A stretch of DNA of 64,000 bases, taken from Rubrobacter indicoceani. Its GTDB lineage: Bacteria; Actinomycetota; Rubrobacteria; Rubrobacterales; Rubrobacteraceae. A program made the position numbers and the translations under genes. Within the stretch, counting starts at the first letter, position 1, and each line of letters starts with the position of its first letter. Below the pieces are notes generated by a model. That model saw only the letters and a program-made list of their open reading frames with translations. It did not search any database and was not told where the DNA came from. The stretch spans positions 868,001 through 932,000 of the forward strand of contig NZ_CP031115.1 of assembly GCF_003568865.1 (NCBI RefSeq), written 5' to 3'. This document shows, one piece after another, positions 53,517 through 55,333 of the stretch.

Positions 53517-54653
53517 TCACATCTCCTGCATCAGCCTCGCCAACAAGGCGGCCCGTTTTGGCAAATGATCCACGATGATCTGCTCGTGCGTCGCGTGCGC
53601 TCCCTGTCCGACCGCGCCGAGGCCATCGAGGGTCGGCGTTCCCACATCGGCGCAGAAGCTGCCGTCCGAGCCGCCGCCGGACTTTGTCTCGCCTAGAGCG
53701 TCGAAACCGAGTTCGGAGGTCGCTATCTCCCTCGCCTTTTCGTAGAGGGCGGTTACATCCGGGGAGCGGAGCATTGGCGGACGGACGATGCCGCCGCTTA
53801 CTTCCACCAGTGCTTCGGGGTGATGCGGTTTCAGGTTTCTTATCACGGCGTCCATGCGCCCGGCTTCCACCTCATCCATGACGCGGAGGTTTACTTTCGC
53901 CTTCGCTTTTCCGGCTATGACGTTCACGCGGGTGCCGCCGCTTATCGTCCCGACGTTCACGGTCGTACCGGTCTCTGCGTCCGTGTTGGAGTGGAGTTCG
54001 AGGACGTGGCGGGCCAGCTCGTCTACCGCGCTTACGCCCTTGAACGGGTTGGAACCGGCGTGTGATTCGCGCCCCGTAACCTCTACATCATAGACCCCGA
54101 CGCCCTTGCGGCTCGTCGTCATGTTGCCGCCGTTGGACGATTCGAGGACGAGGGCGGCGCGGGCGTTTCGGGCTTCTTTTTCTATGAGATCCCGACTGTA
54201 GAAGCTGTGAACCTCCTCGTCGGAGTTGCAGAAAAAGACGACGGGCCGGTCGAAATCGGTGAGCTCCCGCAAGGCGCGTATCGCCCAGAAACCCTGTACG
54301 AGGCCGCCCTTCATATCGAAGACACCGGGGCCGTAGGCGACGCCGTCCTCGATGCGGAACGGGTCCTTCCCGAAAGAGCCGACCGGCCAGACGGTGTCGA
54401 AGTGTCCGACGAGGAGGATCGGCTTTTCGCCGTCTGAGTGATCCCCCCACGTTATTCGAAGGTGGTTGCCGCGCTCCTTTACCGGGATAACCTCCACCTC
54501 GCCGCCGAAACCTTTCGCGTATCCGGCGAGAAACTCACAGAAGGCATCCATGCGCGCCTTGTCGTCCGAGGGGGACTCGCGGGTTACGAAGTCCTCCACA
54601 TCGCCCAGGATGTCGTTCCGGCGTTCGGTCAGGTACTGGAGGAGCTTGCTCAC
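53517..54653 (-). CDS. M20 family metallopeptidase (carboxypeptidase G2-like)
   Basis: 378 residues from GTG 54653. The dinuclear zinc ligands are visible in order: GHFDTVW (His, Asp), GPGVFDMKGG (bridging Asp), CNSDEEVHS (Glu pair), and a C-terminal His in GQGAHATHEQI. A dimerisation lid is in the middle (VTGRESHAGSNPFKGVSAVDELA). It resembles glutamate carboxypeptidase and ArgE/DapE-like amidohydrolases; substrate unknown, cytoplasmic, no signal peptide. It follows the AhpD-like selenoprotein candidate by 59 bases on the same strand, so the two may be co-transcribed. Confidence 0.92.
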   Translation of the reverse strand: MSKLLQYLTERRNDILGDVEDFVTRESPSDDKARMDAFCEFLAGYAKGFGGEVEVIPVKERGNHLRITWGDHSDGEKPILLVGHFDTVWPVGSFGKDPFRIEDGVAYGPGVFDMKGGLVQGFWAIRALRELTDFDRPVVFFCNSDEEVHSFYSRDLIEKEARNARAALVLESSNGGNMTTSRKGVGVYDVEVTGRESHAGSNPFKGVSAVDELARHVLELHSNTDAETGTTVNVGTISGGTRVNVIAGKAKAKVNLRVMDEVEAGRMDAVIRNLKPHHPEALVEVSGGIVRPPMLRSPDVTALYEKAREIATSELGFDALGETKSGGGSDGSFCADVGTPTLDGLGAVGQGAHATHEQIIVDHLPKRAALLARLMQEM

Positions 54654-54712: not shown

Positions 54713-55333
54713 CTACGCCCGTCTGCCGCCCTGCGTCGCCGCCGGGCTCGGGAGGGGGCAGGCCCCGAACTCCGAATCCCCGGCCTCCACCGCATCGAGG
54801 ACTTCCTTATCAACGTCGGTGTGAAAGGTCGCGTGGAAGCGGTTGATCATATTGCTCACCCCTACAAGCGCCCAGATCTCGAGCAACGCCTCCCGCTCGT
54901 AATGCGAGGCTAGCTCTTCGTATAACTCATCGTCTATCGCGATGGTCTCGGACGAGACGCGGGCGTACCGCACGAGCGCGGCTTCTTTCGCGGTATAAAC
55001 GCCCTCCGGCGGGACCCTGTCCAGCAGATGGGAGAGTTGATCCTCCGACAACCCGACGCTCCGACCGAGCATCGTGTGGGTCGGCATTCAGTAGTGGCAG
55101 TTGTTCGCCGCAGACGCCGCCGTGTAGGCAAGCTCGGCCTCCTGCTCCGAGAGGTGGCCGCTCCTCGCGCGAACGTACAGGCTCGCAACAAGGCCCGCGA
55201 TCTCGGGGTGGTTCGCCATCCCCCGGTAGACGTTCAGAACTCGTCCGCGCTTTTTCTCTATGACCTTCAGAATCTCCCGCGCCTCGGGGGCGGCGTTCGG
55301 GTCGTTCTCATCAACCAGCGGTATACGTCCCAT
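54713..55333 (-). CDS. AhpD-like / carboxymuconolactone decarboxylase family protein, candidate selenoprotein (CxxU, TGA at 55088-55090)
   Basis: Read through TGA, this is a 206-residue protein. Residues 1-81 end AASAANNCHY, the TGA is codon 82, and the frame continues MPTHTMLGRSVG to a stop at 54713-54715. In AhpD/carboxymuconolactone-decarboxylase proteins the redox site is C-x-x-C-x-x-x-H; here it reads C79-H-Y-TGA-M-P-T-H86, so TGA takes exactly the second cysteine position. Both halves are good family sequence (AELAYTA upstream; LSEDQLSHLLD, AALVRYARVSSETIAIDDELYEELASHY downstream). A hairpin with a GGTCG loop lies 14-34 bases after the TGA, as expected of a bacterial SECIS. GGAAGG precedes ATG 55333. 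Without selenocysteine insertion it would be two broken ORFs. Confidence 0.75.
55054..55074 (-). promoter_or_regulatory. candidate bacterial SECIS hairpin
   Basis: On the coding strand CGATGCTC, loop GGTCG, GAGCGTCG form an 8-bp stem (one U-G wobble) starting 14 bases after the TGA, with the loop at +22 to +26. A G at the first loop positions and a spacing of this size fit the bacterial SECIS pattern; the GGTC loop resembles that of E. coli fdhF. Confidence 0.65.

What the first reader, a model, noticed from the sequence alone, without database searches (positions are those of the whole stretch)
54713..55333. Probable selenoprotein: AhpD-like protein with TGA at the second redox cysteine (C-x-x-U)
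Two open frames in the same phase are split by one TGA at 55088-55090. The split falls exactly where the second Cys of the AhpD C-x-x-C-x-x-x-H motif belongs: C79-H-Y-[TGA]-M-P-T-H86. Sequence on both sides is convincing family sequence. A hairpin with a GGTCG loop starts 14 bases after the TGA, meeting the spacing and loop expectation for a bacterial SECIS. AhpD-like selenoproteins with CxxU are known in bacteria.
Basis: partly seen in the sequence, partly recalled or inferred. Interest (0 to 1): 0.9.

Follow-up and report, generated by a model that had tools for sequence, protein, structure and literature searches.

The report
AhpD-like selenoprotein with a CxxU site
A bacterial antioxidant-type enzyme gene contains a TGA 'stop' codon that is almost certainly read as the rare amino acid selenocysteine, because the genome has the full selenium-insertion machinery and ten related genes from three bacterial phyla keep both the TGA and the RNA hairpin needed to read it; such proteins are already known.

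Summary
Confirmed, with the gene placed on the minus strand (55333->54713, 206 codons, TAG stop). The single in-frame TGA (55090-55088) is codon 82, in C79-H-Y-U82-M-P-T-H86 of an AhpD/CMD-fold protein, where distant relatives have the second catalytic Cys. The genome encodes selA, selB, tRNA-Sec and selD. Three of its five detected CMD genes carry a TGA at this column. All ten close members found (at least 35% identity; Rubrobacter relatives, an Eremiobacterota genome, three marine proteobacterial genomes) have TGA there; none has Cys. The hairpin meets every term of the published bacterial SECIS model, its codons CTC-GGT-CGG-AGC are synonymously frozen, and one stem pair switches G-C to C-G in concert. 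In Eremiobacterota the gene sits beside selB-selA. The likely function is a CxxU peroxidase or thiol-dependent reductase using the AhpD relay E67/C79/Y81/U82/H86; the substrate is unknown. AhpD-like CxxU selenoproteins have been described since 2005, so this is a new member of a known kind. Mildly new: this subfamily looks selenocysteine-only in the data searched, with a nearly invariant SECIS across phyla. No selenium-labelling data were available.

The parts
54713..55333 (-). AhpD-like (CMD/COG2128-type) selenoprotein gene, 206 codons plus TAG stop, one internal TGA
   Evidence: orthologues
55088..55090 (-). Sec codon TGA (codon 82, U of C-H-Y-U)
   Evidence: TGA conserved in 10 of 10 close relatives
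55054..55074 (-). SECIS-type hairpin: 8-bp stem 55074-55067 with 55061-55054, apical loop GGTCG at 55066-55062
   Evidence: bSECIS model read in PMC13188914
55076..55135 (-). Codons 67-86, holding the AhpD relay residues E67, C79, Y81, U82 and H86
   Evidence: relay defined in PMC3141380
55334..55348 (-). Shine-Dalgarno-like GGAAGG a few bases upstream of the ATG
   Evidence: read directly (reverse complement ...CGGAAGGATTGAGATG)
53517..54653 (-). M20-family metallohydrolase starting about 60 nt downstream on the same strand, possible co-transcribed neighbour
   Evidence: co-transcription is inferred only

Best explanation
The gene makes a full-length 206-residue AhpD-fold protein in which TGA codon 82 is translated as selenocysteine. 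SelB-GTP carrying Sec-tRNA-Sec would bind the GGTCG-loop hairpin just 3' of the codon and deliver Sec in place of termination. Sec82 replaces the second, reactive Cys of the AhpD CxxC site and works with the relay residues E67, C79, Y81 and H86. The selenolate would attack a peroxide or another reducible substrate, and Cys79 would resolve the selenenyl intermediate as a Se-S bond that a cellular thiol reductant reopens. Shown by sequence: frame, motif position, machinery, conserved TGA and hairpin. Inferred: actual Sec incorporation, peroxidase/reductase chemistry and substrate.
For: One TGA only, at the catalytic column, with CMD-family sequence on both sides. tRNA-Sec 62.9 bits, over the Rfam cut-off, and ARAGORN calls tRNA-SeC with tca anticodon. 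selA 500.7 and selB 322.4 bits, both over equivalog cut-offs and adjacent in the genome. selD 345 bits with its own in-frame TGA, KAGUASK. Three of five CMD genes found in this genome carry TGA. Ten of ten close homologues have TGA here. selA is found in the host genomes of nine of the ten genes; the exception, G038, is a 79%-complete draft. In Eremiobacterota the gene lies beside selB and selA. Codons 89-92 are invariant as CTC GGT CGG AGC in 8 of 8 aligned genes from three phyla, while every invariant-residue column outside the hairpin with four or more synonymous codons varies (permutation p = 0.005 for codons 89-94). Pair 18-36 changes G-C to C-G in 3 of 10 with no broken pair. Amino-acid changes are depleted relative to silent ones on both sides of the TGA: pN about 0.25-0.45 against pS about 0.6-0.88 downstream. 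Hairpins after the Sec codon are more stable than those after Cys codons in relatives (mean -14.5 against -10.2 kcal/mol). Predicted fold has pLDDT 88.8 and matches AhpD-like structures 3lvy, 6e8l and 6ohi at TM 0.7-0.8. E67, C79, Y81, U82 and H86 fall exactly on the AhpD proton relay.
Against: No protein or selenium data. The hairpin of this one sequence is only z = -1.9 against shuffles. Only one of eight stem pairs shows a compensatory change, because six never vary. The protein scores below the NCBIfam cut-off for TIGR01926 (54.3 against 81.8). The permutation test on silent sites treats columns as exchangeable although residues differ in degeneracy.
Confidence: 0.95

Rival explanations
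1. The TGA is an ordinary nonsense mutation or sequencing error and the gene is a decaying pseudogene.
For: A close paralogue is frameshifted at a G-run and one relative has an internal deletion, so copies of this gene can decay.
Against: TGA is at the same codon in ten of ten close homologues from independent assemblies and three phyla; amino-acid changes stay well below silent ones downstream of the TGA; the hairpin is conserved.
Confidence: 0.02
2. Two separate products are made: termination at TGA and re-initiation at the ATG that directly follows it (codon 83).
For: In the window TGA is followed at once by ATG, and ORF-listing runs a 124-aa ORF from it.
Against: Eight of ten close relatives have ATA or ATT at that place, ATA in seven of them. 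The split would cut the CxxU site in two, and the hairpin would be unexplained.
Confidence: 0.02
3. TGA is read through by another amino acid (for example Trp or Cys by near-cognate suppression) without SelB.
For: None specific; TGA read-through is possible in principle.
Against: TGA is a common stop in the sampled genes of this genome (11 of 14 stops), so it is not reassigned. Full Sec machinery, the SECIS hairpin and the catalytic column fit Sec.
Confidence: 0.01

Closest known systems
AhpD-like selenoproteins, CxxU (AhpD-like COG2128 / TIGR01926; AhpD-like 2 / PF02627) of the Sargasso Sea, GOS and later surveys (PMC1088965, PMC2398784, PMC13188914)
   Same: CMD/AhpD fold, Sec at the second position of CxxC, SECIS hairpin directly downstream
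   Different: This subfamily scores below the TIGR01926 cut-off, has the motif CHYU(I/M)PTH...MLGRSVG, and is found here in Rubrobacter relatives, Eremiobacterota and marine proteobacteria with no Cys form found
NCBIfam NF053654 'YciW-related (seleno)protein' and NF041238 'AhpD_rel_CFYUT (seleno)protein'
   Same: Same superfamily and same Sec column
   Different: Scores are far under the equivalog cut-offs (40 against 310 and 27 against 175), so it is not a member of either
AhpD of Mycobacterium tuberculosis and PA0269 of Pseudomonas aeruginosa (PMC3141380)
   Same: Relay Glu-x11-Cys-x-(His/Tyr)-Cys-x3-His matches E67, C79, Y81, U82, H86
   Different: Cys rather than Sec; different chain order in M. 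tuberculosis AhpD
Debrominase Bmp8 (PDB 6ohi, 6ohj)
   Same: Top structural match, about 190-residue AhpD-like fold
   Different: 19-20% identity; solved in complex with a brominated pyrrole, a reminder that the substrate need not be a peroxide

Membership tests
Bacterial selenoprotein | In-frame TGA at a column that is Cys or Sec in homologues | tested here: met
Bacterial selenoprotein | Sec machinery selA, selB, selC, selD in the genome | tested here: met
Bacterial selenoprotein | bSECIS: apical loop 3-9 nt, stem 4-16 bp, G in first two loop bases, 16-37 nt from UGA, MFE at most -7.5 kcal/mol (PMC13188914) | tested here: met
   loop GGTCG (5 nt), 7-8 bp, 21 nt, -17.7 kcal/mol for the window hairpin
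Bacterial selenoprotein | Selenium present in the protein product | not testable with these tools
   needs selenium-75 labelling or mass spectrometry
AhpD-like / CMD superfamily | CMD domain with C-x-x-C/U-x-x-x-H core and helical AhpD fold | tested here: met
   PF02627 42.5 bits over cut-off 23; TIGR00778 30.1 over 27.8; fold matches
AhpD-like / CMD superfamily | Five-residue proton relay of AhpD | tested here: met
NCBIfam TIGR01926 peroxidase-related enzyme | Score at or above curated cut-off 81.8 | tested here: not met
   54.3 bits; nearest named subfamily but not a member by this rule
NCBIfam NF053654 YciW-related (seleno)protein | Score at or above curated cut-off 310 | tested here: not met
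   40.1 bits
NCBIfam NF041238 AhpD_rel_CFYUT | Score at or above curated cut-off 175 | tested here: not met
   27.4 bits
AhpD alkylhydroperoxidase (function) | Peroxidase activity or reduction of AhpC | not tested
   biochemistry; no ahpC was seen next to the gene, though AhpC-TSA family genes exist elsewhere in the genome

The most novel reading that the evidence does not exclude
This is a distinct, selenocysteine-only subfamily of AhpD-like enzymes whose SECIS element is almost frozen in sequence across phyla. It may spread by horizontal transfer, sometimes beside selA-selB, and may act on a substrate that Cys cannot handle well.
Probability: 0.35. Interest if true: 0.45.

Novelty: new member of a known kind. 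Interest (0 to 1): 0.3.

Why it matters
Standard gene callers split or truncate this gene at the TGA, so the enzyme and its relatives are likely to be missed or annotated as broken. The set found here gives a clean example of a SECIS conserved at the RNA level across three phyla. It also gives a small family without a known Cys form, useful for asking why some enzymes do not swap Sec for Cys.

Tried and rejected
Reading the coordinates on the plus strand gave two further stops and no AhpD-like sequence, so the gene is on the minus strand. A gathering-threshold Rfam scan of the window found nothing. The fold of the window hairpin alone is not strong evidence. The pseudogene and re-initiation readings were considered and rejected on conservation. 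A plasmid search returned only distant relatives, all below 60% identity and the best rows at 27-32%, annotated as peroxidase-related or CMD proteins. A search of papers for Bmp8 debrominase returned nothing. A best-hairpin script picked an alternative hairpin for L014, and its test 'G in the first two loop bases' does not separate Sec from Cys genes (21 of 21 against 15 of 18), so only hairpin stability is used from that call. Gene neighbourhood gives no shared partner among the subfamily: an M20 hydrolase here, a VTT-domain protein in G004, selB-selA in Eremiobacterota, fatty-acid oxidation genes in the marine genomes.

Full report
What is there. The gene lies on the minus strand, 55333 to 54713. 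It starts with ATG behind a GGAAGG motif and ends in TAG, with a single internal TGA at 55090-55088. Read with TGA as selenocysteine it gives 206 residues. A CMD-family match (PF02627, 6.5e-11) runs from residue 56 to 105, across the TGA at residue 82. The motif is C79-H-Y-U82-M-P-T-H86.

Machinery. The genome is a near-complete 3.1-Mb assembly in three contigs; its closest named relatives in this search are Rubrobacter. It has tRNA-Sec (62.9 bits, over the Rfam cut-off; ARAGORN names it tRNA-SeC with tca anticodon), selA and selB side by side, both over equivalog cut-offs, and selD. selD itself has a TGA in KAGUASK. A peroxiredoxin-like gene in the same genome has GDW-TGA-PYC, a UxxC site. 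Two further CMD genes have TGA at the same catalytic column. TGA is also an ordinary stop here (11 of 14 genes sampled), so the code is not reassigned. Rubrobacter xylanophilus was already listed with five selenoproteins in 2006 (PMC1794560).

Homologues. Searches of 99 relatives, 396 genomes of the phylum and one genome for each of 84,980 species gave ten close members counting this one, at 35% identity or more. These are the window gene, its paralogue, four in genomes of the same family, one in Eremiobacterota and three in marine proteobacteria. All ten have TGA at codon 82. The species-wide scan used patterns that would also have caught Cys forms (C[HF]YC[IM]PTH), and found none; a Cys form with a diverged motif would be missed. 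Distant relatives at about 25-31% identity carry either TGA or TGC/TGT there. selA was found in the host genomes of nine of the ten genes; the exception, G038, is a 79%-complete draft. In Eremiobacterota the gene is next to selB and selA.

SECIS. The published bacterial model asks for a 3-9 nt loop, a 4-16 bp stem, a G in the first two loop bases, 16-37 nt from UGA, and at most -7.5 kcal/mol (PMC13188914). Here the loop is GGTCG, the stem 7-8 bp, the spacing 21 nt, and the hairpin -17.7 kcal/mol. Codons for L89-G90-R91-S92 are CTC GGT CGG AGC in all eight genes compared, from three phyla. Outside the hairpin, every invariant-residue column with four or more synonymous codons varies. GGT is a minority glycine codon in this genome (11%), and the four codons together would be drawn by local codon usage with probability 0.004 in one gene. 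Counting from the T of the TGA, the stem pair between bases 18 and 36 is G-C in seven sequences and C-G in three, with no broken pair. The outer pair 17-37 is U-G or C-G. The slid-register control of that call gave 100% paired cells for the true register and at most 57.5% for slid ones.

Coding on both sides. Pairwise comparisons show fewer amino-acid than silent changes both before and after the TGA, so the downstream half is under protein-level selection. Silent sites are near saturation, so ratios are approximate. Eight of ten relatives have ATA or ATT rather than ATG directly after the TGA, which argues against re-initiation.

Mechanism. AhpD uses Glu118, Cys130, His132, Cys133 and His137 in M. 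tuberculosis and Glu36, Cys48, Tyr50, Cys51 and His55 in P. aeruginosa PA0269 (PMC3141380). The spacing maps exactly to E67, C79, Y81, U82 and H86. The predicted structure (pLDDT 88.8, computed with Cys in place of Sec) matches AhpD-like enzymes at TM 0.7-0.8, with debrominase Bmp8 ranked first. A peroxidase or other thiol-dependent reductase with Sec82 as the attacking group and Cys79 as the resolving thiol is the best guess. The substrate and the electron donor are unknown.

Known or new. AhpD-like CxxU selenoproteins were described in the Sargasso Sea data in 2005 and counted in the hundreds in the GOS data (PMC1088965, PMC2398784). A 2026 review lists several forms, among them TIGR01926 and CMD-like PF02627 (PMC13188914). 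This protein falls below the cut-off of every named NCBIfam subfamily model it matches, passing only the AhpD core domain model, so it is an unnamed subfamily of a known kind. That is worth an annotation fix and a family model; it is not a surprise.

Noticed in passing
L012:1495-1947 (genome C1:2705560-2706006): Close paralogue with the same CHYU motif and SECIS; its N-terminal part is out of frame at a run of six G near L012:1950, either a sequencing error or a real frameshift.
   Followed up: partly
L015:912-1418 (G015:C147:6733-7233): A second CMD gene just upstream of the orthologue has EAEY-TGA where CxxU is expected: Sec apparently kept while the first Cys is lost, with a stable GGCG-loop hairpin.
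   Followed up: partly
L019:1447-1680 (G021): Copy in a relative with an in-frame internal loss of about 120 codons that removes the Sec site and joins the N-terminal 25 codons to the C-terminal 60.
   Followed up: partly
L013:1486-2025 (genome C1:2173651-2174175): Third CMD selenogene of this genome, motif CNYUQSHG, with no His at the AhpD relay position and its own G-containing hairpin.
   Followed up: partly
L085:1501-1869 (genome C1:519700-520068): Peroxiredoxin-like gene with in-frame TGA, GDWUPYC (UxxC), a further probable selenoprotein.
   Followed up: partly
L043:1480-2440 (genome C1:1785967-1786893): selD with in-frame TGA at KAGUASK, a probable Sec-containing selenophosphate synthetase.
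   Followed up: partly
window 54749-54766, minus strand (residues 190-195, GACPLP): A C-terminal G-x-C-x-(L/I)-P motif is shared by five of the close members but absent in G015 and the marine ones; possibly a third thiol.
   Followed up: no
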